From NCBI GenBank assembly GCA_036704125.1, contig DATNQI010000102.1, forward strand, positions 1-64,000: DNA of 64,000 nucleotides. Direction: 5' to 3'. Below are positions 22,975 to 54,186 of this stretch, in pieces. Each line of letters starts with the position of its first letter. Within the stretch, counting starts at the first letter, position 1. The notes under the pieces are model-generated. The model was given only the letters and a program-made list of their open reading frames with translations. It ran no database searches and was not told the origin of the DNA. The stretch comes from Pantanalinema sp. (GTDB taxonomy: Bacteria; Cyanobacteriota; Sericytochromatia; S15B-MN24; UBA4093). The translations under genes were made by a program, and so were the position numbers.

Positions 22975-24180
22975 TCAGTCGCCCAGCAGCAGGGTCTCGA
23001 ACGCTTCGCCCGCCTCGGCCGCCGCGCTTTCCGCGGGGATGACCAGCAGGGCGTTGGCCGCGGCCATGGAGGTCATGCGGCCCGAGCCCTGGGGGCCGGT
23101 CAGGGTGGCCCGGTAACCGTCGGCCTCGCGCCGGACGACGGCCCGCAGGAAGGCGGTCCTGCCCGGCGACTTGGAGCAGCGCTCGGTCAGCACCGAGCGC
23201 ACCGTGGGGCGGTCCGGGCGGGGGTGAGCCATCATCCTGAGCAGGGCGGGGCGGACGTAGTACTCGAAGGCGACCATGGCCGAGACGGGGTTGCCGGGCA
23301 GCCCGAAGGCGGGCTTCCCCGCGAGGGTGGCGTAGGTGAAGGGCTTCCCGGGTTGCTGGGCGACCCGGTCGAAGTGGACCGAACCGAGGCGCGAAAAGGT
23401 CTCGCCCACGTGGTCGAAGGCCCCCACGGAGACGCCCCCCGAGGTGATCACCACGTCGCACGACAGGGCCCGCTCGACGAGCTCCAGCGTCGCCTGCCGG
23501 TCGTCCCGGGCGATTCCCATGAGGACGGGGACGGCCCCGGCCTCGAGGACCATTCCGGCCAGGGCGTAGGCGTTGCTGCCGTAGATCTGGCCCGGGGCGA
23601 GCTCGGAGCCGGGCTCCACCAGCTCGTCGCCGGTGGCGACGATGGCGACCCGCACGGCGGGGTGGACCTCCACGTGGGATCGCCCCACCCCCGCGAGCAG
23701 GCCGATCCGGGCCGCGTTCAGGAGGGTGCCCGGCTCCAGCACGCGCGCCCCGGCCGTGAGGTCCTCGCCCCGGAGGCGCACGTTCTGGCCGACGCGGGCG
23801 CCGCGCGCGAAGGTGACGTGGCCGTCCGATTCCCGGGTCTCCTCGACCTTGACCACGGCGTCGGCCCCGCTCGGCATGATCGCGCCGGTCATGATCCGGC
23901 AGGCCGTGACGGGGGCGAGCTCCGGGGGCTCGGTCCAGCCGGCCGCGACCTCGGAGCGCACGCTGAGCCGCACCGGGGCGTGGGGCGAGGCGAGCGCCAG
24001 GTCCTCGGCGCGAACGGCGTAGCCGTCCATGGCGGAGTTGTCGAAGGGGGGGTGCGCGTGGGGAGAGTCGACCGGCTCGGCCAGCACCCGGCCGAGCGCC
24101 TGGAGCAGGGGCGTTCGGACGCCCGGCATGGGGGAAACGGTGCTCAGGATGAGGCGGCGAGCCTCTTCGACCGGGATCAC
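22975..24180 (-). CDS. moeA: Molybdopterin molybdenumtransferase MoeA
   Basis: A 401-aa enzyme that inserts molybdate into adenylated molybdopterin. The start is a GTG at 24180 preceded by a perfect AGGAGGTCCT; an earlier in-frame start has no site. Landmarks: PPFDNSAMDGYAVRA, RIMTGAIMPSGADAVV, ATGDELVEPG, TSGGVSVGAFDHV, QQPGKPF and GLPGNPVSAMV. It diverges from the nitrate reductase operon across a shared promoter region, linking cofactor supply to the enzyme that needs it. Confidence 0.95.
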   Translation of the reverse strand: MIPVEEARRLILSTVSPMPGVRTPLLQALGRVLAEPVDSPHAHPPFDNSAMDGYAVRAEDLALASPHAPVRLSVRSEVAAGWTEPPELAPVTACRIMTGAIMPSGADAVVKVEETRESDGHVTFARGARVGQNVRLRGEDLTAGARVLEPGTLLNAARIGLLAGVGRSHVEVHPAVRVAIVATGDELVEPGSELAPGQIYGSNAYALAGMVLEAGAVPVLMGIARDDRQATLELVERALSCDVVITSGGVSVGAFDHVGETFSRLGSVHFDRVAQQPGKPFTYATLAGKPAFGLPGNPVSAMVAFEYYVRPALLRMMAHPRPDRPTVRSVLTERCSKSPGRTAFLRAVVRREADGYRATLTGPQGSGRMTSMAAANALLVIPAESAAAEAGEAFETLLLGD

Positions 24181-24269
24181 AGGACCTCCTCTGCGCGTCG
24201 CGCGGAAATGATGCCGCCACGATCGGCATGGATGGGAGTTGGATGATTTCATGTCCGTAGCGTACACGG

Positions 24270-24308
24270 TTGACGTCATGCTTGCTTGTTGCTAGTTTTA
24301 CGTCATGT
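24270..24308 (+). promoter_or_regulatory. Promoter of the nitrate reductase-like operon with flanking direct repeats
   Basis: TTGACG (24270) and TAGTTT (24293) are separated by 17 bases. The octamer ACGTCATG occurs twice, once overlapping the -35 and once just after the -10, with a weaker third copy (GCGTCATA) near 24333. These may be operator half-sites; the regulator is unknown. Confidence 0.5.
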
Positions 24309-24351
24309 ACACATCGTAGTCATTTCCGAATCGCGTCATACCGGAGGGGTC

Positions 24352-25446
24352 ATGTCCGAGCGAAACCCAGCTTCCGCCGGGGCCATCCCCGTTCCCTTCA
24401 TGAGCGCGACCCTGGATGGACGCGGAGTCCTGGCGGGCCTCGTCTTCTCCGCGGTCCTGAGCGCCCTGGTCTACCTCGGCTCCCAGGGGCTCCGGGGTTT
24501 CGACGGCGCGCTTGCGGGCTACCTCTTCAGCACCCTCTTCGCCCTCTTCGGGATCGTCTACCGGTACGTGGTCTGGCTCCAGCGCCCCCCCACCCGGCTC
24601 TACTGGGTGCGGGGCTGGCAGCTCTTCTGGGCCCCCGGCAAGCGCCTGCGCAACATGGGCCTCTTCGTCCGGCTGACCTTCGACAAGCTCGTCGCTCAGA
24701 CCTTCATCCGCCGCCGATCCCACCAGCGCTGGCTCGCGCACCAGCTGATCTTCTGGGGGTGCGTGCTTGCGATCCTGGTGACCTTCCCGCTCACCTTCGG
24801 CTGGCTCCGCTTCGAGAGCGCCGTGTCGGACCCCAGCGTCTACATGCCGGTCCTGTTCGGCGCGCGCATGCCCCTCTTCGGCTTCGCGGCCCGATCGCTC
24901 GTCGGCTGGGTGATCTTCCACCTTCTCGACATCGCCGCGGTGCTCGTGCTCGCGGGGATCGCGATCGCCCTGCCGCGCCACCTCAAGGACGAGGCCGAGC
25001 TCTCGACCCAGCGCCTCGACAACGACTTCATCCCCCTGGTGCTGCTCTTCGCCGTGAGCGTGACGGGGCTGATGCTGACCGTCTCCAACATGGGGATGGC
25101 CGGCAAGTTCTACTACTGGATCACCACCACCCACGCGGTGACGGTCATGCTGTGGCTGCTGTTCTTGCCCTTCGGCAAGTTCTTCCACATCTTCCAGCGC
25201 ATCGCCAACCTCGGCGTCTGGTTCTACAAGGCGGCGGGGGCCGAGGGCGAGCAGGCGCGCTGCGCGCGCTGCCGGGAGCCCTACCTCTCGGTGATGCAGC
25301 GCGACGACCTCAAGCGCCTCCTGCCCGAGCTGGGCTTCGACTACGCCGAGGAGGGCGGCGGCAACTGGCAGGACGTTTGCCCGTCCTGCCGGCGCAAGCT
25401 CGTGACCCTCAACCAGTTCCAGACCGTCGGAAAGCGATTCGTGTGA
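24352..25446 (+). CDS. NarI-like membrane cytochrome b subunit with C-terminal zinc ribbon
   Basis: A 364-aa integral membrane protein; the ATG at 24352 follows GGAGGGG. About six or seven helices are visible. Histidines that could bind heme b lie in helices, as in NarI/DsrM/HdrE-type cytochromes: [28 protein letters not shown] and FGKFFHIF. The last about 70 residues are cytoplasmic-like and carry two Cys-x2-Cys pairs (CARC and CPSC), a probable zinc ribbon or Fe-S site. It opens the operon and likely exchanges electrons between quinone and the molybdoenzyme. The family call is from layout, so moderate. Confidence 0.6.
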
Positions 25447-25459
25447 GGGAGTAAACGCC

Positions 25460-27775
25460 ATGGCTCAGTTGCCCCAGGACCCGGAGCGCCTGAAGGATCG
25501 CTTTGGCCCCACCCTCAAGTACTCCCCGCCGGGGGGCTTCAGGACCGACGCGGTCCCCGACAAGCTGGTCGATACCCACTGCTGCTTCTGCGGGCAGCAG
25601 TGCGGGATCACCCTCAAGGTCCTGGACAACCAGGTCGTCGGCTTCGAGCCCCGGGACTTCCCGTTCAACGAGGGCAAGCTCTGCCCGAAGGGGATCAAGC
25701 GATACCTCCAGGGCTCCCACCCGGATCGCCTGCTCACTCCCATGAAGCGCACGCCGGAAGGGTTCGCGCGCATCTCGTGGGACGAGGCCCTCTGCGAGAC
25801 CGTCGCCAAGATCAAGGAGATCCAGGAGCGCCACGGCAAGGACGCCTTCGCCATGCTCTCGGGGGTGAGCCTCAACAACGAGAAGAGCTACCTGGTGGGC
25901 AAGTTTGCTCGCTTGGCCCTCCAGACCGCCAACCTCGACTACAACGGCCGCCTGTGCATGGTCTCGGCCGGGGCGGGCAACAAGAAGGCCTACGGGATCG
26001 ACCGTGCGAGCAACTCCTGGGCGGACATCCCCAAGGCCAAGGCGATCTTCGTGATAGGCTCCAACGTCGCCGAGTGCGCCCCCATCACCACCCGCTACAT
26101 CTGGAGCGCCCGCGACGCCGGCGCCAAGCTGATCGTCGCGGACCCCCGGATGGTGCCGGGGGCCCGCACCGCGGACCTCTACCTGCCCCTGCGCCCGGGA
26201 TCCGACAGCGCGCTCTTGATGGCCATGCTGCACGTGGTGATCCGGGACGGCCTCACCGACCCGGCCTTCATCCGGGACCACACCTCGGGCTTCGAGGCGG
26301 TCGCCGAGAGCGTGAAGGACGCCACCCCCGAGTGGGCGGCCGAGCTTTGCGGGGTCCCCGCCGCCAAGATCGAGCAGGCCGCCCACTGGTACGCCGAGGC
26401 CGAGACGGCCATGATCCTTCACGCGCGCGGGCTAGAGCACCAGAGCAAGGGCGTCGACAACGTCCTGGCCTGCGCCAACCTGGCGCTCGCCACCGGCAAG
26501 ATCGGGCGCGAGGGCTGCGGCCACAGCACCATCACGGGCCAGGGCAACGGCCAGGGCGGCCGCGAGCACGGCCACAAGTGCGACCAGCTCCCCGGCAACC
26601 GCGACATCACCAACCCCGAGCACCGGGCCTACGTGGCCGGGGTCTGGGGGGTGGACGAGGCGGAGATCCCGGGCAAGGGCCTCTCCGCCCAGGAGATCAT
26701 GGAGGCCATCCACCGGGGCGAGATCAAGGGGCTGCTCAGCATCTGCTTCAACCCCCTGGTGAGCCTGCCGGACGCGACCTTCACCCGCGAGGCCCTCGAT
26801 CGCCTCGAGCACTACACGGTCATCGACTTCTTCCTGTCCGAGACGGCCCAGCACGCCGACGTGGTCCTCCCCGGCAGCCTCCACGAGGAGGACGAGGGCA
26901 CCGCGACCTCGGCCGAGGGGCGGGTGATCAAGATCAACGCCGCCGTGACCCCGCCGGGGGAGGCCCGGCGCGACTGGGAGATCCTCCTGGACATCGCCGA
27001 GCGCCTCGGCCGGGGGAGGTACTTCCGCTACGAGAACGCCGAGCAGATCTTCAACGAGCTGCGGCTGGCCTCGCGCGGGGGCACCGCCGACTACTCGGGC
27101 ATCACCTGGGCCAAGGTGGTCGAGAACCAGGGCATCTTCTGGCCCTGCCCCCAGACCACCGAGGAGGGCGAGCGGACCCCGGACTGGAGGGCGCTGGACA
27201 CGGCGCACCCGGGCACCCCCCGGCTCTACGAGGGGGGGCGCTTCTACCACCCCGACGGCCGGGCCCGCTTCAACGTCGTGAACTGGCGAGCGCCCGCCGA
27301 GGTCGTGGATGACGCCTACCCCCTCTGGCTCACGACGGGCCGGGTCATCAGCCAGTACCTCTCGGGCACCCAGACCCGGCGCATCGGGCCCTTGGTCGAC
27401 CAGTACCCCTTCCCGCGCCTGGAGCTCCACCCGCGCCTGGCCGAGGCCCTGGGGATCCAGGACGGCCAGTGGGTGACGACGTTGACCCGCCGCGGCCGCC
27501 TCACCCTGCGGGCCCAGGTGGTCAAGACCATCCGACCCGACACGGTCTTCATCCCCTACCACTGGGCCGGCGACCTCTCGGCAAATGTTCTGACCAACCG
27601 CGCCCTCGATCCCGTCTCCAAGATCCCCGAGTACAAGGTCTCGGCCTGCCGCGTTCAGCCCGCGACGCCCGAGGAGGTCGCGCGGGGTGAGCGCGCCGAG
27701 GCCGACGCCTACCGCCAGGAGCCGATCCAGCTCGAGCTCGGCCTGGCCGATCGCCGCAAGGAGGCGTCGCGCTGA
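25460..27775 (+). CDS. Molybdopterin oxidoreductase, probable nitrate reductase catalytic subunit (Nas/NarB type)
   Basis: A 771-aa bis-MGD enzyme. The N-terminal [4Fe-4S] ligands are Cys41, Cys44, Cys48 and Cys75 (HCCFCGQQC and LCPKG). The probable molybdenum ligand is Cys166 in GRLCMVSA, as in Nas/Nap enzymes, not the Asp of Nar[17 protein letters not shown] and [16 protein letters not shown] are typical of assimilatory-type reductases. There is no Tat signal, so it should be cytoplasmic. NarK downstream supports nitrate as substrate; a formate dehydrogenase is the main alternative. Its stop overlaps the next start. Confidence 0.8.
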
Positions 27776-28425
27776 TGGAGCTCCAGTTCTTCGTCGACCC
27801 CATCCGCTGCATCGGCTGCAAGGCGTGCCTCCAGGGGTGCTCCGAGTGCGCCACCCACCGGGGCCGGTCCATGATCCACCTGGAGTACATGGATCGCGGC
27901 ACCTCGACCCAGACGGTGCCCATGGTGTGCATGCACTGCGAGAACCCGACATGCGCCCAGGTCTGCCCCGCCGACGCCATCAAGCGGACCGAGGACGGGG
28001 TGGTCCAGTCGAGCCTCAAGGAGCGCTGCATCGGCTGCGCCAACTGCGTCAACGCCTGCCCCTTCGGGGTCCCGCGCTACTACCCCGAGTTCGACCAGAT
28101 GCTGAAGTGCGACATGTGCTACGACCGCACGTCGGTGGGCCTCAAGCCCATGTGCGCGACCGTCTGCCCATCGGACGCCCTGTTCTTCGGCACCCGCGAG
28201 GAGTTCGAGACCCGGCGCTCGGGGCGTCCGGTGAACGAGTTCCGCTTCGGAGCCCAGATTGTTCGCACCCGGGTCTTCATGGTGCTCGACGAGGCCCACG
28301 ATCGCCTGGACGTCCAAGACGTCGCCCTCGCGGACACCCCGGATCCGCGCTTCGAACCCGACACCTACGATTCCGTCGACCCCTTCTCCCACGTGGAGCC
28401 ACCGAGCAACGGAGGCCCGGCATGA
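27775..28425 (+). CDS. Four-cluster ferredoxin-type electron transfer subunit
   Basis: A 216-aa polyferredoxin of the DmsB/NrfC/FdhB type that passes electrons between the membrane part and the molybdoenzyme. Four cysteine groups are visible, enough for four [4Fe-4S] clusters: [40 protein letters not shown] and CDMC with CATVCP. There is no signal peptide or membrane anchor, so it should be cytoplasmic with the catalytic subunit. Its start overlaps the preceding stop (TGATG) and its stop overlaps the Rieske start (ATGA). Confidence 0.9.
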
Positions 28426-28922
28426 CCCGCAAGCCCGAGGATCCCCACTGGAAGACCGACTTCAGCGTGGACTGGAGCCGGACCTCCTACCTCTCGCGCC
28501 GCGAGTTCACGCGCTACCTGGCGCTGGGCAGCGTCACCATGGCCGCGGGAAGCACCTTCATGGCGCTGCGCGCGGGGATCGGACGCCCCCACGCCGCCCC
28601 GCCACGGCGCGCGATCGCCGCCATCGACGCCGTTCCCCCCAAGAGCAGCCTGGCTTTCGAGTACCCGGCCAAGGGGCATTACGCCCTCTTGATCCGCCAT
28701 GAGGACGGGACCTTCGACGCCTTCTCCCAGAAGTGCACCCACCTCGGCTGCAGCGTCTTCTACGCCGCACACGGCGACAAGCTGGAGTGCCCCTGCCACG
28801 AGGGCTTCTTCGACGTCCGCAGCGGCGACGTGCTCGCGGGGCCGCCGCAGCGGCCGCTGCCGCGGATCCAGCTCGAGGTCGCGAACGGCAAGGTGTACGC
28901 CGTGGGCGGAGGCGAGGCATGA
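28422..28922 (+). CDS. Tat-exported Rieske [2Fe-2S] protein
   Basis: A 166-aa Rieske protein. The N terminus has a twin-arginine motif, SRREFTRYL (Arg26-Arg27), followed by a hydrophobic helix, so the cluster domain should sit on the outer face, probably still anchored. Rieske box 1 is CTHLGC and box 2 is CPCHEGFFD, including the extra cysteines that form the disulfide of high-potential, quinol-oxidising Rieske proteins. It is coupled by ATGA overlaps to the genes on both sides. Its likely partner is the cytochrome b at 24352. Confidence 0.9.
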
Positions 28923-29116
28923 GCGCCCCGCGTACCTGGCTGGTCGACGGGATCTTCCTGTTCGTCCTGTTGCTGTGGATCATCCAGCTCTTCCTCGTGA
29001 TCACGGGGATCGACGCCTACCTCGGCGGCCAGGCCGGTATCCTCTGGCCTGCCGCCATCACCTCGGCCGTTCTCGCCCTCATCAACCTGAAGCTGGTGAG
29101 CTACATCCAGGACTAG
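28919..29116 (+). CDS. Small two-helix membrane protein of the nitrate reductase operon
   Basis: A 65-aa protein with two membrane helices (about residues 8-28 and 37-58) and a short C-terminal tail. The start overlaps the Rieske stop by four bases. I do not recognise the family. Size and placement suggest a structural subunit that stabilises the membrane part of the complex. Confidence 0.65.
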   Translation: MSAPRTWLVDGIFLFVLLLWIIQLFLVITGIDAYLGGQAGILWPAAITSAVLALINLKLVSYIQD

Positions 29117-29124
29117 GAGCCCCC

Positions 29125-30291
29125 ATGTCGAACCGGAACATCCAGCTCTTCCTCGCCACCGTGGCCTTCGCCGTGAGCTTCGCGGTCTGGGGCATGCTCG
29201 GGGCCCTCGCCCCCCTGCTGCGCACCGCGTTCGGGCTCAGCCAGTCCCAGGTGGCCCTGATGGTGGCGATCCCGGTGCTGCTGGGGGCGATCGGGCGTCT
29301 GCCGATGGGGATCGCCGCCGATCGCTTCGGGGGGCGCCCGGTGATGGCCGCGCTGCTCGTCTTCACGCTGATCCCCGCGGCGGGCCTCGCCCTGAGCGCC
29401 TCCTATCCGGCCCTGCTCCTGTGGGGCTTCTTCCTCGGGATGGCGGGCACCACCTTCGCGGTGGGGGTCGCCTTCACCAGCAAGTGGTTCGCCCCCGAGC
29501 AGCAGGGCACGGCCCTCGGGATCTTCGGGGCGGGCAACGTCGGCCAGAGCGTGGCGGTCTTCTTCGCCCCGCGCCTGGCCGAGGCGCTCGGCTCCTGGCG
29601 GTCGGTGCTCTGGCTCTTCGGGGGGCTGAGCCTCGCCTGGGGGATCGTCTTCTGGGGCTTCGCCCGCGACGCGCGCCCGGGGGTGCCGCGCTCCTTGGCC
29701 GAGATCCTGGCGATCCTGGGACGCTCGCCGATGGCCTGGCTGCTCAGCCTGTTCTACTTCGTGACCTTCGGCGGCTTCGTCGCCCTGGGGGTCTACCTTC
29801 CCACCCTCCTGACGTCCCGCTACGGCCTCGCGCTGCCCGACGCGGGCATGCGGGCGGCGGGCTTCGTGCTGCTGGCGACCCTTTGCCGACCGATCGGAGG
29901 CTACCTCGCGGACCGGCTGGGGGGCGCGCGCATCCTTGCCGGGGTCTACGCGGTGAGCGTGCTCTCGGGCTTCCTGCTCGTTCCCTCGGGCATGGTCAGC
30001 TTCACGGTGGGGGCCCTCTCCTTCGCGTGCGCGGCGGGGCTCGGCAACGGGGCAGTCTTCAAGCTGGTGCCCCAGTACTTTCCCGTCGAGACCGGCGCCG
30101 TCACCGGCCTGGTCGGCGCCTTCGGCGGGCTCGGGGGCTTCTTCCCGCCTTTGGTGCTCGGGCTCCTGCTCGAGCTGACGGGCCACTACACCCTGGGCTT
30201 CCTGGCCCTGGCCGCGACCTCCGCGCTCTGCCTCGCGCTCAGCCTGCGCCTGGCGCATCGCTCGCCTCCTCTCGTGCCCGGGCGAGGGTGA
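29125..30291 (+). CDS. narK: Nitrate/nitrite transporter, MFS family (NarK/NasA type)
   Basis: A 388-aa major facilitator with twelve predicted helices. Nitrate-porter signatures are present: FLGMAGTTFAVGVAFTSKWF in the first half and the Gly-rich GLGNGAVFKLVPQYF ... TGLVGAFGGLGGFFPP in the second, matching the NNP family nitrate signature. It brings nitrate in or exchanges nitrite. It closes the operon and is the main evidence that the linked molybdoenzyme acts on nitrate. Confidence 0.92.
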   Translation: MSNRNIQLFLATVAFAVSFAVWGMLGALAPLLRTAFGLSQSQVALMVAIPVLLGAIGRLPMGIAADRFGGRPVMAALLVFTLIPAAGLALSASYPALLLWGFFLGMAGTTFAVGVAFTSKWFAPEQQGTALGIFGAGNVGQSVAVFFAPRLAEALGSWRSVLWLFGGLSLAWGIVFWGFARDARPGVPRSLAEILAILGRSPMAWLLSLFYFVTFGGFVALGVYLPTLLTSRYGLALPDAGMRAAGFVLLATLCRPIGGYLADRLGGARILAGVYAVSVLSGFLLVPSGMVSFTVGALSFACAAGLGNGAVFKLVPQYFPVETGAVTGLVGAFGGLGGFFPPLVLGLLLELTGHYTLGFLALAATSALCLALSLRLAHRSPPLVPGRG

Positions 30292-30360: not shown

Positions 30361-30824
30361 ATTGAAGGACTGACCCGCTTTGACGCCAAGGGTAGGGCGA
30401 GGATGGTGAACGTGCTCGGCGTGGCCCGCCGATCCGGCCTGCGCCCTGTGCGGAGAGTGCCCCAGCATCACGACGCTGGTCGAGGACGGCGCGATCGCCT
30501 GCGATCCCCGTCGATGACGAGATCTCGGCGCGGGAGCTTCACGAGGCCCTCGAGGACGTCGTCGTGATCGCCGTGAGGGAGAGCCTCACGGCGGTTCCGG
30601 CTTTGAAGGGCGCCTTCCATGTGCCGCATGCGCGGCTGAGCGCGGCGCTGCCCGGGATTCCGCCCGACCGCAAGGTGGTCGTCTGCTGCCTGCGCGGTGA
30701 GCTCGGCCTTCAGGCGGTCGCGCTGCTGCGCGCGGCCGGATGCGAGCAGGCCATGAGTCTCTCGGGTGGCTTGCTCGCGTATTTCCGGGAATTCGACCCG
30801 ATCAAACGAGACTTGGAGCGATGA
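30361..30824 (+). pseudogene. Broken gene: moaC 5' end fused to moeZ (MoeB-rhodanese) 3' end
   Basis: A GGAGG site at 30349 precedes an ATT where the start codon should be. The next codons read LTRFDAKGRARMVNV, the conserved MoaC N terminus. About 20 bases later, in another frame, comes DPACALCGECPSITTLVEDG, the zinc-motif region near the end of MoeB/MoeZ, stopping at 30516. In the third frame from 30513 a rhodanese domain runs to 30824 (SARELHEALEDVVVIAVRE ... VVVCCLRGELGLQA ... LSGGLLAYFRE); its active-site loop is CLRGEL, so a thiol is still present. The simplest reading is a deletion between moaC and moeZ followed by frameshifts. Confidence 0.75.
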
Positions 30825-30912: not shown

Positions 30913-31332
30913 CTAGTCCTGGTGGCAGCAGCCCTCTACCCAGGTCTCCCCCCCCACGAAGTACTCCTTCTTCCAGATGGGGACGTCCCGCTTGATGGTG
31001 TCGATCCCATGACGGCATGCCTCGAACGCCGCGCCGCGGTGAGGGGCGCTGACGCCCACGAGCACCGCGACCTCGCCGATCGCGAGCCGGCCGACCCGGT
31101 GGATCAGCACCACGCGCTTGGCATCCCATCGCTCGAGGATCTCTCGGCCGATGCCCTCGAGCTGTGCCTGGGCCATCTCGGCGTAGGCCTCGTAGGCGAG
31201 GTGCAGGACCTCACGCCCTTCGTTGTGGTCGCGCACGACCCCGCAGAAGGTGACGATGGCCCCCGCCCTCGGGTCGGCGAGCAAGGCCTCGGCCTGATGG
31301 ACGTCGATGGGATCCGAGGTGACGAGGTACAT
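30913..31332 (-). CDS. moaE: Molybdopterin synthase catalytic subunit MoaE
   Basis: A 139-aa catalytic subunit of molybdopterin synthase, which adds the dithiolene sulfurs to precursor Z. Landmarks: TFCGVVRDHNEGREV, YEAYAEMA, VLIHRVGRLAIGEVAVLVGVSAPHR, and the C-terminal IKRDVPIWKKEYF with the active-site lysines. It follows moaD with two bases between them, so they are co-transcribed. Confidence 0.95.
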   Translation of the reverse strand: MYLVTSDPIDVHQAEALLADPRAGAIVTFCGVVRDHNEGREVLHLAYEAYAEMAQAQLEGIGREILERWDAKRVVLIHRVGRLAIGEVAVLVGVSAPHRGAAFEACRHGIDTIKRDVPIWKKEYFVGGETWVEGCCHQD

Positions 31333-31333
31333 G

Positions 31334-31579
31334 TTAGCCTCCGCTCACGGGGGGGATGAGGGCGAGCGGCTCGCTCTCGCCGATGACGTGGTGATCGGGA
31401 GCGAAGCGCAAAGCGGAGGCCACGCGCGCGCTGGGAAGGTAGGCGGCGAGCGACGGAAACTCCCGGGCGACGGCCGCCTTGAGATCCCCGACGGTGCTGC
31501 CGGCAGGAAGGTCGAGCGAGATGCGCTCGGCCCTCTGGGCCTCCTTTAGGACGGCGAAAAGCATGATGTCGAGCCGCAT
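31334..31579 (-). CDS. moaD: Molybdopterin synthase sulfur carrier MoaD
   Basis: An 81-aa ubiquitin-fold sulfur carrier. It ends in the required Gly-Gly (PPVSGG), which is adenylated and thiocarboxylated by a MoeB/MoeZ-type enzyme. The body has [15 protein letters not shown] and [15 protein letters not shown]. The activating enzyme expected nearby is represented only by the remnant at 30361-30824, so an intact moeB must lie elsewhere if the pathway works. Confidence 0.93.
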
Positions 31580-40104: not shown

Positions 40105-40185
40105 TTGACATAATAAAGTCATAAGGATAACTTTTCCAACTTTTTACCTTGCTTGGTCGGGCCGATCTGGGATCTATGCTAGAAT
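40105..40185 (+). promoter_or_regulatory. Promoters of the nuo operon
   Basis: TTGACA (40105-40110) and TAACTT (40128-40133) are spaced by 17 bases, and a second element, TGCTAGAAT, lies at 40177-40185. Either or both may drive nuoA-N from the 160-bp AT-richer leader. Confidence 0.5.
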
Positions 40186-40264
40186 GGGCCGCAGCTCAAA
40201 GCGTGGACTCCCCATGGATTCACGCGCCTGCACACTTTGCCGCCTCCCGAAGGACTGGAAACTT

Positions 40265-40629
40265 ATGCTGGACTTCAACGTTACATTCGCGATCGCCGTC
40301 GTGCTCGCGCTGGCCATCATCGTGCCGGTTGCGATGCTCGCGATCCACGCGCTGCTCGGTCGTGCGCGCGTCACGACAGTCGCCAAGGGCGAGACCTACG
40401 AGGCGGGCATCGCGCCCAAGTCGGTGATCGGCACGCCCCGCTCGCGATTCTCGGTCAAGTTCTACCTGATCGCCATCCTCTTCATCATCTTCGATGTGGA
40501 AGCGGTCTTCCTCTATCCCTGGGCGGTCAACTTCCAGAAGCTGGGCCTGTTCGGCTTCGTGGAGATGCTGATCTTCCTGTCCGTGCTGTTCACGGGCTTC
40601 GTTTACATCCTGAAGAGAGGAGCACTCAA

Positions 40630-40642
<13 letters not shown>
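40265..40642 (+). CDS. nuoA: NADH-quinone oxidoreductase subunit A
   Basis: Membrane subunit of complex I, 125 aa with three helices. The ATG at 40265 gives MLDFNVTF; family marks are [29 protein letters not shown] with the conserved acidic residues, and FLYPWAV. The stop lies inside the start of nuoB. Confidence 0.95.
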
Positions 40643-41133
<491 letters not shown>

Positions 41134-41149
41134 GAAAGGGATTTAGACG

Positions 41150-41704
41150 ATGGAACAGACCCTCTCGATCACCCTCAGCAAGCTCCAGGAGAAGTTCAAG
41201 AAAGAGATCGTCGCCGTCTCCTCGTGGCGCGCAGACGACTGCGTCGTCATCCGCAAGGAGGCCCTGGTGGCCGTCGCCGCCTTCCTGCGCGACGATCCCG
41301 AGCTCGACTACAACATGCTGGTGGACATCGGCGCGGTGGACTACCTCAACCACCCCAAGCCCCAGCCCGAGCGCTTCGCGGTCGCCTACCACTTCCTCTC
41401 GCTGAAGTTCAAGCACCGGGTCCGGGTCAAGGTCTTCGCGGGTCTCAAGGACCCCGAGATCGACACCCTGTGCGGCATGTGGAAGGCCGCCAACTGGATG
41501 GAGCGCGAGGTCTTCGACCAGTACGGCCTCAAGTTCAAGGGCCACCCCAACCTCAAGCGCATCCTCAACCACGCCGAGTTCGTCGGGCACCCGCTGCGCA
41601 AGGACTACCCGATCCGCAAGCGCCAGGTGCTGACCGAGAGCGATACCCTCATGGACGAGATGCAGAAGCGTCTCGAAGCCAAGGGTCTCACGACAGGACG
41701 GTAA
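41150..41704 (+). CDS. nuoC: NADH-quinone oxidoreductase subunit C
   Basis: A 184-aa peripheral-arm subunit of complex I, separate from nuoD here (they are fused in E. coli). Landmarks: LDYNMLVDIGAVDYL and the signature WMEREVFDQYGLKFKGHPNL followed by LRKDYPI. Confidence 0.96.
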   Translation: MEQTLSITLSKLQEKFKKEIVAVSSWRADDCVVIRKEALVAVAAFLRDDPELDYNMLVDIGAVDYLNHPKPQPERFAVAYHFLSLKFKHRVRVKVFAGLKDPEIDTLCGMWKAANWMEREVFDQYGLKFKGHPNLKRILNHAEFVGHPLRKDYPIRKRQVLTESDTLMDEMQKRLEAKGLTTGR

Positions 41705-41710
41705 GAAGAC

Positions 41711-42952
41711 ATGTCCATTCCCTCCTCCAAGATCCTCGAGACCCCGCTCGACCTCCAGAGCGAGCAGGAGTTCTACAAGGAGCTCCACACCGAGCTGATG
41801 TTCCTCAACCTCGGTCCCTCGCACCCGGCGGCGCACGGCACCCTGCGCACCTTCGTGGCCCTGGACGGTGAGACCATCAAGGCGGCCGTCGCCGAGATCG
41901 GCTACCTGCACCGCGGCTTCGAGAAGACCGTCGAGCAGCGCACCTGGAACCAGGTCATCCCCTACACCGACCGCCTGAACTACTGCTCGGCCGCGCTCAA
42001 CAACTTCGCCTTCTGCAAGGTGGCCGAGCGCATGCTCGACATCGAGATCACCCCGCGCGCCGCGGCGCTTCGGGTCATCGTCGGCGAGCTGATGCGCATC
42101 ATCGACCACCTGATCGCGATCGGCACCAACATCCTCGACATGGGGGCGCTGACCAACTTCTGGTACACCTTCAACCAGCGCGAGAAGGTGTACGACATCA
42201 TGGACAAGCTGTGCGGCGCGCGCCTGACCAACTCCTACGGCCGGATCGGCGGCCTCTACCGCGACGCCTACCACGGCTTCGAGGAGGACGTGCTCGCGGT
42301 CCTGAAGGACTGCGAGGACGGCGTCAACCAGGTCGGCAAGCTGGTGCGCAAGAACAAGATCTTCATCGACCGCACCAAGGACGTCTGCATCGTCAGCCCC
42401 GAGATGGCGATCTCCTACGGCTTCACCGGCCCAACCCTTCGCGCCTCGGGCGTCGACTGGGACCTGCGCCGGGACACCCCCTACTGGGGCTACGACCAGT
42501 ACGACTTCGAGGTCCCCGTCGGCACCACCGGCGACACCTGGGACCGCGTGCTCGTGCGCTTCTACGAGGTCGAGCAGAGCGCCAGGATCATCCGCCAGGC
42601 GATCAAGACCCTTCCCAAGGGCCCGATCACCGTGGACGACAAGCGGATCGCCCTGCCCGGCAAGTCGGACACCTACCAGAACATCGAAGGCCTGATCAAC
42701 CACTTCAAGCTGATCTTCGAGGGGGTCCGGGTGCCCGAGGGCGAGGTCTACGACGCCATCGAGGCCGCCAACGGCGAGCTGGGCTTCTACATCACCTCGG
42801 ACGGCTCGGGCTTCCCCTACCGCGTCCGGGTGCGTCCGCCCTGCTTCATGAACTTCGCGGCCTTCCCCGAGATGATCGAGGGGTCCATGATCGCGGATGC
42901 CATGGCCACCCTCGGCTCCATCAACATCATCGCCGGCGAGCTCGATCGCTAG
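41711..42952 (+). CDS. nuoD: NADH-quinone oxidoreductase subunit D
   Basis: The 49-kDa homologue, 413 aa, which forms the quinone pocket with NuoB. Landmarks: LNLGPSHPAAHGTLR with the quinone-binding His, EIGYLHRGFEK, and GELDR at the C terminus. The arginine next to LHRGFEK is in the region methylated by NDUFAF7 in mitochondria, and a MidA gene lies upstream. Confidence 0.97.
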   Translation: MSIPSSKILETPLDLQSEQEFYKELHTELMFLNLGPSHPAAHGTLRTFVALDGETIKAAVAEIGYLHRGFEKTVEQRTWNQVIPYTDRLNYCSAALNNFAFCKVAERMLDIEITPRAAALRVIVGELMRIIDHLIAIGTNILDMGALTNFWYTFNQREKVYDIMDKLCGARLTNSYGRIGGLYRDAYHGFEEDVLAVLKDCEDGVNQVGKLVRKNKIFIDRTKDVCIVSPEMAISYGFTGPTLRASGVDWDLRRDTPYWGYDQYDFEVPVGTTGDTWDRVLVRFYEVEQSARIIRQAIKTLPKGPITVDDKRIALPGKSDTYQNIEGLINHFKLIFEGVRVPEGEVYDAIEAANGELGFYITSDGSGFPYRVRVRPPCFMNFAAFPEMIEGSMIADAMATLGSINIIAGELDR

Positions 42953-42973
42953 TCGCGCCATAAGGAAGATCAC

Positions 42974-43516
42974 ATGTTTGCGTTCACCGAAGAAAACGAG
43001 CGGAAGTTCGAGGAGATCCTCTCCCGCTTCCCCGCCGAGAACCGGATGGCCGCCACCCTGCCGACCCTGTGGCTCGCCCAGGAGCAGCACGGCTGGTTGC
43101 CGCCCGAGGTCCTCAAGTACGTCGCCGAGCGCGTGGGCGTGACCCCCGCGCACGTGCTGGGCGTGGCGACCTTCTACACCATGTACCTGACCAAGAAGCC
43201 CGGCGAGCACCTGCTCGAGGTCTGCACGTCGGTCTCGTGCTGCCTCACGGGCGGCCGCGAGACCCTCAAGCTGCTCTGCGACAAGCTCGAGGTCCTGCCC
43301 GGCGAGACCACCTCGGACGGCAAGTTCACGGTGCGCGCGGCCGAGTGCCTCGGCTCGTGCGACACCAGCCCCATGATGCAGGTCGACAACGACGTCTTCG
43401 TCGAGAACCTGACCCCCGAGAAGCTCGACGCCCTGATCGACGAGCTCAAGGGCCAGCCCTGGGGCACCCGCACCAAGCTTGCGAGCTTCTGCGCCGCCGG
43501 CAACAGGAGGAGCTAG
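42974..43516 (+). CDS. nuoE: NADH-quinone oxidoreductase subunit E
   Basis: The 24-kDa homologue of the NADH-input module, 180 aa, with a [2Fe-2S] cluster. Ligands are in EVCTSVSCC and AECLGSCDTSP. ATFYTMY is the usual family segment. The next gene follows after three bases. Confidence 0.95.
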   Translation: MFAFTEENERKFEEILSRFPAENRMAATLPTLWLAQEQHGWLPPEVLKYVAERVGVTPAHVLGVATFYTMYLTKKPGEHLLEVCTSVSCCLTGGRETLKLLCDKLEVLPGETTSDGKFTVRAAECLGSCDTSPMMQVDNDVFVENLTPEKLDALIDELKGQPWGTRTKLASFCAAGNRRS

Positions 43517-43519
43517 TCA

Positions 43520-44803
<1,284 letters not shown>

Positions 44804-44815
44804 GAAGAGAGCATC

Positions 44816-46387
44816 ATGGCGACGATTACGCTGAACGGCCGTCAGGTCGAGGTCCCGGATGGCCTCAACCTGATCCAGGCCGCCGAACACGTCGGGGTCA
44901 CCATCCCCCACTACTGCTATCACCCCGGCCTGCCCATCGACGGCAACTGCCGCATGTGCCTGGTCGAGATCGAGGGGGCCCGCGGCCCCCAGATCTCCTG
45001 CAACACCTTCGTCAAGGACGGGATGGTCGTCAAGACCGACACCCCCGCCGTCGAGAAGATGCGCAAGGGCGTGCAGGAGTTCCTGCTGCTCAACCATCCC
45101 ATCGACTGCCCCATCTGCGACCAGGCGGGCGAGTGCCGGCTCCAGGACTACTACATGGAGTACGGCCAGTACGAGAACCGCTCCATGGTCCCCAAGGTCG
45201 AGAAGAACAAGGTCGTCGACCTGGGGCCCCTGGTCGTGCTCGACCAGGAGCGCTGCATCCTGTGCTCGCGCTGCGTCCGCTTCTGCGAGTCGGTCACCGA
45301 GACCGGCGAGCTGGTCATCGCGGGCCGCGGCGACAAGAGCCGCATCGAGACCTTCCCCGGCATGCAGCTCGACAACCCCTACTCGGGTAACGTCGTGGAC
45401 CTGTGCCCGGTGGGTGCCCTGACCTCCAAGGACTTCCGCTTCAAGCAGCGGGTGTGGTTCCTCAACACCGCCAAGTCGGTCTGCGTGGGCTGCTCCAACG
45501 GCTGCTCGGTCAACATCGACCACCGCGCCGGCATGACCTACCGCTACAAGCCCCGCCACAACGCCCAGGTCAACGAGTACTGGATGTGCGACGCGGGCCG
45601 CCTGAGCTACAAGGCCCTCAACGACAACCGCCTCTACGCCGCCCTGGTGGACGGCGAGGAGGTGCCCGTCGGCATCGCGCTCGACGCGGTCATCGCCAAG
45701 CTCAAGGCCGCGGTGGCCGAGCACGGCGCCGACTCGGTCGCGCTGGTGGGCTCGGCTCACGCCACCCTCGAGGCCAACTTCGTCCTCAAGCGCCTGGCCG
45801 CCGAGGTCCTCAAGACCTCGAAGCTGTTCGGCGCGACCCTCACCCCCGACGGCGAGGCCGACGACTTCCTGATCAAGGCCGACAAGACCCCCAACCGCAA
45901 GGGCCTGGACTTCCTGGGCTACGATCAGAGCGCCGAGGCCCTCAAGGCCGCGGTCGCCTCGGGTTCGATCAAGGTCCTGGTCGCGATGGACAACGACCTG
46001 GTCGGCGAGGGCGGTCCCGAGTGGGCCCAGCTCTTCAAGAGCGTTCCTTTCACCGTCTACATGACCAAGCACCACACCCCCTGGGCCGAGATGGCGTCAG
46101 TCACCCTGCCCATCGCCTCGCACGCCGAGCAGTTCGGCTCCTTCGTGCAGGCCAAGGGTGTGCTCCAGAAGGTCATGAAGGCTTACGACGCCCAGGGCGA
46201 CGCGGCCCCCAGCTGGGAGGTCGTCTCCTCGCTGGCGCGCGCGCTCGGCACCGACTTCGGCTACGACGACGTGGAGCAGATCTGGACCGACATGAGCGCG
46301 GCCTACGAGGCGCTCAACGGCATGTCCTTCTACGGCATCCCGGAGACCGGGCACCAGCTGCCCGTCGCCGAGATGGTTGGAAAGTAG
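44816..46387 (+). CDS. nuoG: NADH-quinone oxidoreductase subunit G
   Basis: The 75-kDa homologue, 523 aa. It has an N-terminal ferredoxin domain (CYHPGLPIDGNCRMC), the His-ligated cluster region (HPIDCPICDQAGECRLQD), two further cysteine groups (CILCSRCVRFC and CVGCSNGC), and a shortened molybdopterin-oxidoreductase-like C-terminal domain with no cofactor. It is shorter than the E. coli protein but the ferredoxin part is complete, so I read it as functional. Confidence 0.94.
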   Translation: MATITLNGRQVEVPDGLNLIQAAEHVGVTIPHYCYHPGLPIDGNCRMCLVEIEGARGPQISCNTFVKDGMVVKTDTPAVEKMRKGVQEFLLLNHPIDCPICDQAGECRLQDYYMEYGQYENRSMVPKVEKNKVVDLGPLVVLDQERCILCSRCVRFCESVTETGELVIAGRGDKSRIETFPGMQLDNPYSGNVVDLCPVGALTSKDFRFKQRVWFLNTAKSVCVGCSNGCSVNIDHRAGMTYRYKPRHNAQVNEYWMCDAGRLSYKALNDNRLYAALVDGEEVPVGIALDAVIAKLKAAVAEHGADSVALVGSAHATLEANFVLKRLAAEVLKTSKLFGATLTPDGEADDFLIKADKTPNRKGLDFLGYDQSAEALKAAVASGSIKVLVAMDNDLVGEGGPEWAQLFKSVPFTVYMTKHHTPWAEMASVTLPIASHAEQFGSFVQAKGVLQKVMKAYDAQGDAAPSWEVVSSLARALGTDFGYDDVEQIWTDMSAAYEALNGMSFYGIPETGHQLPVAEMVGK

Positions 46388-46399
46388 GCGCAACTCACC

Positions 46400-47764
46400 A
46401 TGACTTCGAACCTGCTACTCGACTTCGTCATCGTCGCCCTCAAGGCGGTGTTCCTGCTCCTGGTCCTCCTGGTGATGGCTCCGGTCCTGATCGTGCTCGA
46501 GCGCAAGATCTCGGCCTGGATCCAGGACCGCCCCGGCCCCAACCGGGCCGACATCGGCGGCTTCCGCCTGGCCGGCTTCGTCTACATCGTGGCCGACGCG
46601 ATCAAGCTCTTCACCAAGGAGAACTTCACCCCGACCAACGCCAACCGCTTCTATTACTACCTGGCGCCCGCCATCTCGGTGGCGGTCGCCCTCTCCACCG
46701 GAGCGGTCCTGCCCTTCGCCGACACCCTCGTCTTCGGCGACGTCTCGGTCCCCATGCAGCTGCTGCCCATCAATGCCGGCTTGCTGTGGTTCTTCGGCGT
46801 GGCCTCGCTCGGCGTCTACGGGATCATCCTGGCGGGCTGGGCCTCGAACAACAAGTACTCGCTGCTGGGCGCCCTGCGCGGCAGCGCGCAGATCATCAGC
46901 TACGAGATCCCCATGGGCCTCTCGGTCGTCGGCCTCCTGATGGCCTACCAGACCCTGGAGCTGAACAAGATCGTCCTGGCGCAGGGCGGTCCCCTGAGCT
47001 TCTTCGGCCTGTTCGACCTCGGCTTCCACGTCGGCCCGGCCTGGATCGGCATCCCCAACTGGGGCGTGTTCATCCAGCCCCTCGCCTTCATCATCTTCCT
47101 GGTCGCCTCGTACGCGGAGACCAACCGCACCCCCTTCGACCTGGTCGAGTCCGAGGCCGAGATCGTCGCGGGCTTCCACGTCGAGTACAGCGCCATGAAG
47201 TTCGGTATGTTCTTCTTCGCCGAGTACATGGCGATGGTCGTCGCCTCTAGCATCATGACCACGCTGTTCTTCGGCGGGTGGCAAGTCCCCTTCTTCAGCA
47301 CCCAGGCGCTGCAGCAGCTTTCGCTGCCCATGATTCGCGTCGGCCTGATCGGCACCATCGCGGTGCTGGCGCTGATGGCGGTGGGCCTGTTCAAGCTCTA
47401 CCAGGCCAACAAGGGCCGCTTCGGCGACGCGCGCGACAACGAGGGCAAGATCCTCGGCGTGCTCGTCAGCGCCCTGGCGGTGCTCATCGCCGCAGTCCTC
47501 GTCGCGACCCTCTCGATCAGCGCCCTTCCCGTCTGGGGCGGGGTGGCCTTCGCCGCGGTCGCGCAGTTCGCCTCGTTCTTCGTGAAGATGTTCCTGATCG
47601 CCAGCACCTTCGTCTGGGTCCGCTGGACCGTGCCCCGGTTCCGCTATGACCAGCTGATGAGCCTCGGCTGGAAGACCCTCCTGCCCCTGGCGCTCGCCAA
47701 CATCTTCGTCACCGGCGTGGTGATTCTCCTGATGAATCACTTCAAGCTTGGAGGTGGGATCTAA
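46400..47764 (+). CDS. nuoH: NADH-quinone oxidoreductase subunit H, with an inserted segment
   Basis: Membrane subunit at the quinone entry, 454 aa against a usual 330-360. Core landmarks are normal: ERKISAWIQDRPGPNR, GSAQIISYEIPMG, SYAETNRTPFDLVE(SE), and the C-terminal FVWVRWTVPRFRYDQLM with LGWK. The extra length lies at about residues 300-385: two additional hydrophobic segments around a charged loop (KGRFGDARDNEGK), inserted just before the last core helices. Its stop overlaps the nuoI start. Confidence 0.94.
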   Translation: MTSNLLLDFVIVALKAVFLLLVLLVMAPVLIVLERKISAWIQDRPGPNRADIGGFRLAGFVYIVADAIKLFTKENFTPTNANRFYYYLAPAISVAVALSTGAVLPFADTLVFGDVSVPMQLLPINAGLLWFFGVASLGVYGIILAGWASNNKYSLLGALRGSAQIISYEIPMGLSVVGLLMAYQTLELNKIVLAQGGPLSFFGLFDLGFHVGPAWIGIPNWGVFIQPLAFIIFLVASYAETNRTPFDLVESEAEIVAGFHVEYSAMKFGMFFFAEYMAMVVASSIMTTLFFGGWQVPFFSTQALQQLSLPMIRVGLIGTIAVLALMAVGLFKLYQANKGRFGDARDNEGKILGVLVSALAVLIAAVLVATLSISALPVWGGVAFAAVAQFASFFVKMFLIASTFVWVRWTVPRFRYDQLMSLGWKTLLPLALANIFVTGVVILLMNHFKLGGGI

Positions 47765-48258
47765 TGTCGCTCAAGGTCGAACGCCCGACGTCGGACATCA
47801 AGGAGGAGATCTACCTCCTGGCCATCGTCAAGGGCATGGGTCTCACGCTCAAGCACCTGGTGTCGAGCCTCTTCAACCCTCGGAAGCTCCCCATCGTGGA
47901 GTACCCCGAGCAGCAGAAGCAGTTCCCCGCGGGCTACCGCGGCAAGCACCGCCTGACCAAGCGCGAGGACGGCTCGGTCCGCTGCGTGGCGTGCTACATG
48001 TGCGCCACGGCATGCCCTGCCGAGTGCATCCACATCGTGGCCGAGGAGTCCGAGGACCCCACGGTCGAGAAGCGCCCCGCGCGCTTCGACATCGACCTGC
48101 TGGAGTGCGTCTTCTGCGGGATGTGCGTCGAGGCGTGCCCGGTGGATGCCATCCGCATGGATTCGGGCATCTACTCGTTCACCGACTTCAATCGCAAGGA
48201 CTTCGTCATCACCAAAGAAGAGCTGATGGCCGTCAAGCCGCAAGGCATGCCGGACTAG
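47764..48258 (+). CDS. nuoI: NADH-quinone oxidoreductase subunit I
   Basis: A 164-aa subunit with two [4Fe-4S] clusters (N6a, N6b) linking NuoG to NuoB. Motifs: CVACYMCATACPAEC and CVFCGMCVEACPVDA. The N-terminal amphipathic part (LKHLVSSLF) lies along the membrane. Confidence 0.96.
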   Translation: MSLKVERPTSDIKEEIYLLAIVKGMGLTLKHLVSSLFNPRKLPIVEYPEQQKQFPAGYRGKHRLTKREDGSVRCVACYMCATACPAECIHIVAEESEDPTVEKRPARFDIDLLECVFCGMCVEACPVDAIRMDSGIYSFTDFNRKDFVITKEELMAVKPQGMPD

Positions 48259-48286
48259 CCGCACCGAAGTAGGAGCCCCCCCTTCC

Positions 48287-48790: not shown

Positions 48791-48798
48791 GAGCCCCC

Positions 48799-49101
48799 AT
48801 GCTTACGCTGCAACACTTCCTGATCGCCAGCGTCCTGATGTTCGCCACCGGCGTCGCGGGCGTGGTCGGCCGCAAGAACCTGTTCATCGTCTTCATGTCG
48901 ATCGAGCTGATGCTGAACGCGGTCAACCTGAGCTTCGTCGCCTTCGCCCGGTTCATGAACCAGCTCGACGGCCACGTCTTCGTCTTCCTCGTCATGGCCG
49001 TGGCCGCTGCCGAAGCCGCGATCGGGCTTGCGATCGTCATTTTGCTCTTCAAGAACAAGGAGTCGTTGAACGTCGACGACTTCTCCGTCATGAAGCGGTA
49101 G
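48799..49101 (+). CDS. nuoK: NADH-quinone oxidoreductase subunit K
   Basis: A 100-aa, three-helix membrane subunit. The conserved glutamates are in FMSIELMLNAVNL and AAAEAAIGLAIVI. Begins nine bases after nuoJ. Confidence 0.95.
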   Translation: MLTLQHFLIASVLMFATGVAGVVGRKNLFIVFMSIELMLNAVNLSFVAFARFMNQLDGHVFVFLVMAVAAAEAAIGLAIVILLFKNKESLNVDDFSVMKR

Positions 49102-49111
49102 AGGTTTCCCG

Positions 49112-51079: not shown

Positions 51080-51089
51080 GGATTGATCA

Positions 51090-52628: not shown

Positions 52629-52631
52629 GGC

Positions 52632-54119: not shown

Positions 54120-54132
54120 AGGAAGGCCCGAA

Positions 54133-54175: not shown

Positions 54176-54186
54176 CGTCGTGAGGG

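What the first reader, a model, noticed from the sequence alone, without database searches (positions are those of the whole stretch)
24352..30291. Nitrate reductase-like complex that mixes a Nas-type catalytic subunit with a cytochrome b and a Rieske protein
One operon with overlapping starts and stops encodes a NarI-like cytochrome b, a Nas/NarB-type molybdoenzyme, a four-cluster ferredoxin, a Rieske protein, a two-helix subunit and NarK. Nas enzymes are normally soluble and take electrons from ferredoxin or NAD(P)H; here the neighbours look respiratory and quinol-linked. This may be a membrane-coupled reductase distinct from Nar, Nap and classical Nas.
Basis: partly seen in the sequence, partly recalled or inferred. 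Interest (0 to 1): 0.75.

Follow-up and report, generated by a model that had tools for sequence, protein, structure and literature searches.

The report
Membrane nitrate reductase with Rieske subunit
A nitrate-reducing enzyme of a type thought to be soluble and used only for nitrogen nutrition is encoded here, and in bacteria of at least eleven phyla, together with the membrane electron-carrying parts of a respiratory enzyme, which suggests an overlooked way of breathing with nitrate.

Summary
Window 24352-30291 encodes, head to tail, a NarI/EtfD-fold dihaem cytochrome b, a NasC-type molybdoenzyme, a 4x[4Fe-4S] protein, a Tat-anchored Rieske protein, a two-helix protein (DUF6755) and NarK, in a non-photosynthetic cyanobacterium (Sericytochromatia). 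It is not a local oddity. All 80 nearest catalytic-subunit loci, from 11 named phyla, carry the cytochrome b; 76 carry all four core genes (the other four lie on short contigs), 75 in the same order. In a sample of Acidobacteriota searched for DUF6755 alone, 20 of 20 hits lay beside the Rieske and ferredoxin genes. The catalytic subunits form one clade (support 100) inside the NasC branch, outside formate dehydrogenases, NarB/Klebsiella-type NasA, NapA and Nar. The host genome (96% complete) has no siroheme nitrite reductase, NrfA, NarG or other nitrate reductase, so nitrate assimilation looks unlikely there. Best reading: a membrane-bound quinol:nitrate oxidoreductase with its active site in the cytoplasm, exchanged between phyla as a unit. 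Quinol linkage, sidedness and the Rieske's role are inferred. Ten searches of an open-access library found no description, and DUF6755 has no papers there. New variant of a known kind.

The parts
24352..25446 (+). Cytochrome b, 364 aa, NarI/EtfD fold, six transmembrane segments; likely haem ligands H130 (24739-24741), H190 (24919-24921), H261 (25132-25134), H279 (25186-25188); cytoplasmic C-terminal rubredoxin-like CxxC...CxxC domain (C304-C346, 25261-25389)
   Evidence: H130/H261/H279 invariant in 85 homologues, H190 in 78; AlphaFold2 model pLDDT 91.8; Foldseek NarI/EtfD; charge distribution of loops
25460..27775 (+). Catalytic subunit, NasC-type Mo-bisMGD nitrate reductase, 771 aa; N-terminal [4Fe-4S] Cys C41,C44,C48,C75; Mo ligand Cys166 in YNGRLCM (25955-25957)
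   Evidence: NasC model 797 bits, motif comparison, tree; no RRx[FLMIV] Tat-like motif and no hydrophobic segment
27775..28425 (+). Ferredoxin-type subunit with 16 invariant cysteines in four groups: four [4Fe-4S] clusters expected
   Evidence: nearest solved relative FdnH
28422..28922 (+). Rieske [2Fe-2S] protein with an N-terminal Tat-type RR anchor (R26,R27; 28497-28502) and CTHxxC...CPCHxGxF ligand loops (28734-28799)
   Evidence: RR and all six ligand-loop Cys/His present in 82 of 82 homologues; Gly at 128 in 81/82 and Phe at 130 in 80/82; model pLDDT 92.5, Foldseek AioB / C. tepidum Rieske
28919..29116 (+). Two-helix membrane protein, 65 aa, DUF6755 (PF20540)
   Evidence: hydrophobic segments 3-37 and 39-57; 20 of 20 DUF6755 hits in a sample of Acidobacteriota lie beside Rieske and ferredoxin genes of this type
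29125..30291 (+). NarK-family nitrate/nitrite transporter
   Evidence: TIGR00886 232 bits, below its 311.7 cut-off; NarK, SLAC1 or HPP transporter genes recur beside the operon elsewhere
22975..24279 (-). moeA, molybdenum insertion (flanking, divergent)
30564..30824 (+). Rhodanese-like protein, weakly like the MoeZ C-terminus (flanking)
30913..31332 (-). moaE, molybdopterin synthase large subunit (flanking)
31334..31579 (-). moaD, molybdopterin synthase small subunit (flanking)

Best explanation
The operon encodes a membrane-bound quinol:nitrate oxidoreductase built on a NasC-type catalytic subunit. Proposed path: (menaqui)nol is oxidised on the outer side by the NarI-like cytochrome b together with the exported Rieske protein and DUF6755; protons are released outside; electrons cross the membrane through two b haems (outer H190/H261, inner H130/H279) to the four-cluster protein, then to the [4Fe-4S] cluster and molybdenum of the catalytic subunit in the cytoplasm, where nitrate brought in by NarK is reduced to nitrite. 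It would conserve energy as NarGHI does, with an unrelated catalytic branch and an added Rieske centre. Shown here: gene set, conservation, clade, cofactor ligands, predicted folds, genome context. Inferred: nitrate as substrate, quinol as donor, physical complex, topology, role of the Rieske. In this organism nitrite is probably exported or passed to a NirK-like enzyme; in lineages with nirBD or nrfA it would feed ammonium formation.
For: Catalytic branch: NasC best family model, YNGRLCM motif like Paenibacillus-type NasC, FDHs differ (RxCH); 63-member clade, SH-aLRT 100, inside the NasC branch. Gene set: cytochrome b in 80/80 loci, ferredoxin 78, Rieske 76; 75/76 in the same order; distance matrices of the four core proteins correlate (r 0.49-0.85; Mo-Rieske 0.76 against a permuted maximum of 0.09). 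Independent test: 20/20 DUF6755 hits beside the Rieske and ferredoxin genes. Transmembrane electron wire: NarI/EtfD fold and two His pairs at opposite membrane faces, H261-H279 spacing 18. Exported Rieske: RR in 82/82. Nitrate: NarK in 30, SLAC1 in 13, HPP in 9, NirB in 8 of 80 loci, Mo-cofactor genes on both sides here. Respiratory rather than nutritional here: no NIR_SIR, NrfA or NarG and no other molybdopterin oxidoreductase than NuoG, two NirK-like proteins, a qcrABC complex. Elsewhere only 9/52 operon-bearing genomes have narG; five Acidobacteriota genomes lacking NIR_SIR have NrfA; nine Streptomyces-type loci have pyruvate formate-lyase next door.
Against: No biochemistry. The outer haem ligand H190 is Asn in 6 and Lys in 1 of 85 proteins, so two haems may not be universal. 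37 of 52 operon-bearing genomes have a siroheme nitrite/sulfite reductase and some loci adjoin nirB/nirD, so assimilation is possible in part of the family. No NarJ-type chaperone was found in the window operon. Foldseek E-values for the cytochrome b are weak (0.02-0.15) although probabilities are near 1. Absence calls rest on a 96% complete MAG.
Confidence: 0.72

Rival explanations
1. Membrane-tethered assimilatory nitrate reductase: the same complex takes electrons from quinol (or another carrier) but serves nitrogen nutrition, with the nitrite passed to NirBD or NirA.
For: Catalytic subunit is in the assimilatory NasC branch; nirB/nirD adjoin the operon in Pelagicoccus and several Planctomycetota, most of which lack a detected DUF6755; 37/52 genomes have a NIR_SIR protein.
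Against: 15 of the 52 genomes, among them the window genome and its Sericytochromatia relative, have no NIR_SIR protein; neighbours in Streptomyces (PFL) and some Acidobacteriota (NnrS) suggest hypoxic use; a transmembrane haem wire and exported Rieske are not needed for assimilation.
Confidence: 0.2
2. Periplasmic enzyme: the Rieske Tat signal carries the Mo and ferredoxin subunits across the membrane as hitchhikers, as AioB does for AioA (own knowledge), and nitrate is reduced outside.
For: Only the Rieske has a Tat-type motif, present in all 82; its fold is AioB-like.
Against: Recurrent NarK/SLAC1/HPP transporters and adjacent nirB imply nitrate or nitrite in the cytoplasm; the most positively charged loop of the cytochrome b and its C-terminal domain put its inner haem and expected docking face inside; the Rieske keeps an uncleaved-looking anchor as in QcrA.
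Confidence: 0.12
3. Electron port to cytochrome c: the Rieske exchanges electrons with a periplasmic cytochrome c or the bc/b6f complex, making a cytochrome c:nitrate oxidoreductase, or in reverse a nitrite oxidase.
For: AioB-like Rieske fold; AioB docks cytochrome c552 (PMC10071563, abstract); a qcrABC complex and a cytochrome c-like gene exist in this genome.
Against: Every Rieske of the family lacks the Ser, and nearly every one the Tyr, that raise the potential (PMC12954380), which fits a partner nearer menaquinol; no c-type cytochrome was seen in the window operon; nitrite oxidation does not explain nirB neighbours.
Confidence: 0.1
4. Another oxyanion or an unknown substrate is reduced; the nitrate label comes only from homology.
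For: No assay; NasC model score below its curated cut-off (797 against 1100).
Against: NarK/SLAC1/HPP and nirB neighbours; nitrate reductase active-site motif; nesting in the NasC branch.
Confidence: 0.07

Closest known systems
NasC-type assimilatory nitrate reductase (Paenibacillus/Bacillus NasC, actinobacterial NasC, Deinococcus grandis NasA)
   Same: Same catalytic branch and YNGR(x)CM motif; cytoplasmic; nitrate transporters nearby
   Different: Those annotated loci have nirB next door and no cytochrome b, four-cluster protein, anchored Rieske or DUF6755; here the partners are membrane and electron-transfer proteins
Respiratory nitrate reductase NarGHI
   Same: Architecture: cytoplasmic Mo subunit, four-cluster subunit, NarI-fold dihaem cytochrome b, NarK
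   Different: Catalytic subunit is not NarG (66 against cut-off 1084 bits), Cys rather than Asp Mo ligand, all-Cys clusters, no narJ, added Rieske and DUF6755
Arsenite oxidase AioAB
   Same: Small Rieske subunit of similar fold with a Tat signal, partner of a molybdoenzyme
   Different: AioA has no protein ligand to Mo (PMC3758308) and is periplasmic; here Cys166 is present and a cytochrome b and four-cluster protein are added
Rieske/cytochrome b (bc1, b6f) complexes, including haloarchaeal nitrate-linked ones
   Same: Exported Rieske plus a dihaem cytochrome b; haloarchaeal Rieske/cyt b genes lie with nitrate reductase genes (PMC4683180)
   Different: Cytochrome b is of NarI/EtfD fold, not bc1 fold; the host keeps a separate qcrABC set; catalytic subunit is NasC, not archaeal NarG
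Bacillus bataviensis nasC linked to hcp and a Rieske-type protein (PMC3475470)
   Same: NasC with a Rieske-type gene in one locus
   Different: No cytochrome b or four-cluster protein reported there

Membership tests
Assimilatory Nas (NasC branch) | Catalytic subunit in the NasC/Nas clade with a Cys-Met Mo motif | tested here: met
Assimilatory Nas (NasC branch) | Soluble enzyme served by ferredoxin or an NAD(P)H partner such as NasB | tested here: not met
   Gene partners are cytochrome b, four-cluster protein, Rieske and usually DUF6755 in the complete loci; solubility itself not assayed
Assimilatory Nas (NasC branch) | Nitrite reductase for assimilation in the genome | tested here: not met
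   No PF01077 in the window genome; met in 37 of the 52 operon-bearing genomes searched
NarGHI | NarG catalytic subunit with Asp Mo ligand | tested here: not met
   TIGR01580 66 of 1084 bits; Cys ligand
NarGHI | NarI-type dihaem membrane cytochrome b | tested here: met
   Foldseek prob 0.95-1.00 (TM about 0.5, weak E-values); two His pairs
NarGHI | narJ chaperone in the operon | tested here: not met
NapAB | Tat-exported NapA with napD/napB | tested here: not met
   No Tat-like motif in the Mo subunit, NapA outside the clade, no napD/B in the operon
Formate dehydrogenase | Sec/Cys-His active-site motif and FDH clade | tested here: not met
   CM not CH; outside FDHs
bc1/b6f complex | Rieske with cytochrome b of the bc1 fold | tested here: not met
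   Rieske present; cytochrome b is of NarI/EtfD fold
Arsenite oxidase | AioA without amino-acid Mo ligand | tested here: not met
   Cys166 conserved; AioA model 151 bits of 359
Quinol:nitrate oxidoreductase (function) | Quinol-dependent nitrate reduction by membranes | not testable with these tools
   needs enzyme assay

The most novel reading that the evidence does not exclude
A third bioenergetic type of cytoplasmic nitrate reductase: the Rieske and the NarI-like cytochrome b form a new quinol-oxidising site in which the first electron of quinol goes through a low-potential Rieske (Ser to Gly and Tyr to Phe in nearly the whole family) before crossing the membrane to a NasC-type enzyme, so that nitrate respiration runs without Nar, Nap or a bc1-type cytochrome b, in lineages where NasC genes are now read as assimilatory.
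Probability: 0.3. Interest if true: 0.85.

Novelty: new variant of a known kind. Interest (0 to 1): 0.66.

Why it matters
NasC/NasA genes are counted as markers of nitrate assimilation; a recent survey of the superfamily states that they function exclusively in assimilation (PMC10100899). A lineage of NasC that is always linked to a membrane haem wire and a Rieske protein, in Streptomyces, Deinococcus, Acidobacteriota, Chloroflexota and others, would mean that part of those counts are mis-assigned and that nitrate respiration is wider than narG/napA surveys show: 43 of the 52 operon-bearing genomes searched had no NarG match. It also gives DUF6755 a likely role, and offers a natural test of how a Rieske centre can work with a NarI-type instead of a bc1-type cytochrome b.

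Tried and rejected
Formate dehydrogenase, NapA, NarG and arsenite oxidase identities for the Mo subunit: rejected by motif and tree. Contig chimera or contaminant as the source of the operon: the flanking UvrA is 75% identical to the Sericytochromatia relative and lower in Deinococcales, so horizontal transfer is preferred. Rubredoxin-like domain as an essential electron carrier: three of its four Cys are lost in six homologues, so it is probably structural. All-against-all clustering of flanking ORFs was slow and mostly picked up antisense frames; replaced by seeded searches. Literature searches for the operon, for DUF6755 and for Sericytochromatia nitrate reductase gave no description; the library is open-access only. 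Sigma70-type promoter scan: nothing.
Full report
Check of the observation. The six genes are present on the + strand between 24352 and 30291 with the overlaps described. Scans name them: the 771-aa protein is a molybdopterin oxidoreductase whose best curated family is NasC (797 bits; cut-off 1100), next Fdh-alpha (593 of 666); the 216-aa protein is a four-cluster ferredoxin; the 166-aa protein a Rieske protein; the 65-aa protein DUF6755; the last a NarK-subfamily transporter. The cytochrome b had no Pfam hit and no sequence match in the PDB. MoeA and MoaE/MoaD flank the operon.

Host. The window lies in a 3.5-Mb, 96% complete MAG of the Cyanobacteriota; the operon-bearing relative in the same family is titled Candidatus Sericytochromatia (G038; L084 in G428, which looks like the same genome). 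In 386 genomes of the phylum only the window genome and G038 have a close relative of the catalytic subunit (55% identity); photosynthetic cyanobacteria have NarB at 40% identity or less. The G038 locus has the same cytochrome b, Mo, ferredoxin and Rieske order.

The operon is conserved and widespread. A scan of species genomes with an alignment of the two Mo subunits gave 222 relatives; the best 80 were kept (roughly 50-75% identity), from Deinococcota, Actinomycetota (many Streptomyces and Kitasatospora), Acidobacteriota, Planctomycetota, Chloroflexota, Verrucomicrobiota, Bacteroidota, Armatimonadota, Myxococcota, Binatota and Sericytochromatia (tree labels). With profiles made from the window proteins, cytochrome b was found in 80/80 loci, ferredoxin in 78, Rieske in 76, DUF6755 in 69; the four loci without Rieske lie on short contigs. 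75 of 76 loci with all four core genes have the same order. Distances among the four core proteins correlate across 60 loci (Pearson 0.49-0.85; Mo against Rieske 0.76, permuted maximum 0.09). In an independent search by DUF6755 alone in 149 Acidobacteriota genomes (which included one genome already known to hold the operon), all 20 hits sat beside a Rieske gene of this type, 19 of them with the ferredoxin gene in the short stretch held and one (L145) cut off before it. Annotated Deinococcus plasmids show the same order, the cytochrome b being mislabelled 'MFS transporter'.

Catalytic branch. The Mo-ligand motif is YNGRLCM here; Paenibacillus NasC, actinobacterial NasC and D. grandis NasA have YNGR(F/Y)CM; NarB, Klebsiella NasA and NapA have other R-x-CM forms; FDHs have RxCH. 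In a maximum-likelihood tree of 90 rows (quick PMSF search, SH-aLRT support) the 63 operon Mo subunits form one clade (100), inside a NasC branch (100) with the Paenibacillus, actinobacterial and D. grandis enzymes; NarB, Klebsiella-type NasA and NapA form another branch (99) and FDHs lie outside. Several reference branches are long, so the exact order among them is unsure. The window protein sits with Deinococcota (78% to D. wulumuqiensis) while the other Sericytochromatia protein sits among Chloroflexota; the flanking UvrA follows the host lineage (75% to G038). The operon was thus probably acquired by horizontal transfer, separately in the two.

Anatomy of the membrane part. In 85 cytochrome b homologues H130, H261 and H279 are invariant and H190 is present in 78. 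The model (pLDDT 91.8) has six transmembrane helices and matches EtfD and NarI with Foldseek probability 0.95-1.00, but with weak E-values. The loop 77-123 is strongly positive (mean 9.1 K+R), loop 149-182 is not (1.8), which puts the first of these and the C-terminal domain inside. H190/H261 then lie near the outer face and H130/H279 near the inner face: a two-haem wire. The spacing H261-H279 of 18 equals that of the second His pair of NarI (own knowledge). The C-terminal CxxC...CxxC domain loses three of its four Cys in six homologues and is probably structural.

Rieske. The RR of a Tat-type anchor and the six Cys/His of the ligand loops are in 82 of 82 proteins. The position that holds a hydrogen-bonding Ser in bc1 Rieske proteins is Gly in 81/82 (Ala in one) and the Tyr position is Phe in 80/82; in yeast, loss of these lowers the potential by about 130 and 65 mV (PMC12954380). 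The host's own QcrA keeps Ser and Tyr (CPCHGSIY). The nearest PDB sequence, the Thermus Rieske protein, has Gly but keeps Tyr. I infer a Rieske of lower potential than a bc1 one, nearer menaquinol. Its model resembles AioB and the C. tepidum Rieske. The Mo and ferredoxin proteins show no Tat-like motif or hydrophobic segment.

Function from context. Genes beside the operon elsewhere: NarK in 30 loci, SLAC1 channel in 13, HPP in 9 (HPP members are nitrite transporters, own knowledge), NirB in 8, NirD in 6, NnrS in 4, pyruvate formate-lyase in 9 and its activase in 12 Streptomyces-type loci; a GAF-BTAD regulator follows in D. wulumuqiensis. D. grandis has instead a classical nasA with nirB and nirD. 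The window genome has no NIR_SIR protein, no NrfA, no NarG and no other molybdopterin oxidoreductase besides NuoG, but two NirK-like proteins below the curated cut-off and a qcrABC set; G038 has a NirK above the cut-off. So nitrite made here is unlikely to be assimilated through siroheme enzymes. Across 52 operon-bearing genomes (two of them probably the same genome) 37 have NIR_SIR, 9 NarG, and 10 strong NrfA matches; five Acidobacteriota genomes without NIR_SIR have strong NrfA matches. The complex probably serves respiration in some lineages and may serve assimilation in others, for example where nirB/nirD adjoin it.

Mechanism. Most likely a quinol:nitrate oxidoreductase with a cytoplasmic active site, working like NarGHI but not a member of Nar: quinol, then outer haem (with the Rieske assisting the first electron transfer or stabilising the site), inner haem, four clusters, Mo, nitrate. 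The Rieske's exact role is the weakest step. Rivals are listed with their tests.

Novelty. Ten searches of an open-access library found no description of this gene set; DUF6755 had no paper. A superfamily survey treats NasC/NasA as exclusively assimilatory (PMC10100899). Work in subscription journals could not be checked. I file it as a new variant of a known kind: nitrate reductase, with a new combination of modules.

Noticed in passing
L087 and other Streptomyces/Kitasatospora loci (L086, L088, L091, L097, L100, L104, L105, L111): Pyruvate formate-lyase and its radical-SAM activase lie beside the operon (directly upstream in L087) in nine Streptomyces-type loci, a gene pair for anaerobic metabolism in a genus usually called strictly aerobic.
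   Followed up: partly
L044, L045, L055, L058, L059, L062: Six Verrucomicrobiota/Planctomycetota loci have nirB/nirD beside the operon, and five of these six lack a detected DUF6755, suggesting an assimilatory variant.
   Followed up: partly
L122 (G000:C4): The host genome has a Bacillus-like qcrABC (b6f/bc type) set with a canonical high-potential Rieske loop and a small cytochrome c-like gene upstream.
   Followed up: partly
L164:1312-2370 and G000:C54:11749-12543: Two NirK-like multicopper proteins below the curated NirK cut-off in the window genome; G038 has one above it.
   Followed up: partly
L112:10763-12463: GAF-BTAD regulator follows the operon in D. wulumuqiensis; GAF-domain genes follow in two other Deinococcus plasmids. 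It may be a nitrate or oxygen-responsive activator.
   Followed up: no
window 24260-24345: The short stretch between moeA and the cytochrome b gene holds CGTCATG repeatedly; possible regulator site, not tested.
   Followed up: no
window 40184-54262: Complex I genes (NuoA and NuoJ identified, NuoG at about 45434-46309) lie about 10 kb downstream of the operon.
   Followed up: no
public annotation of L112, L140, L141: The cytochrome b of this operon is annotated as 'MFS transporter' in Deinococcus records.
   Followed up: yes
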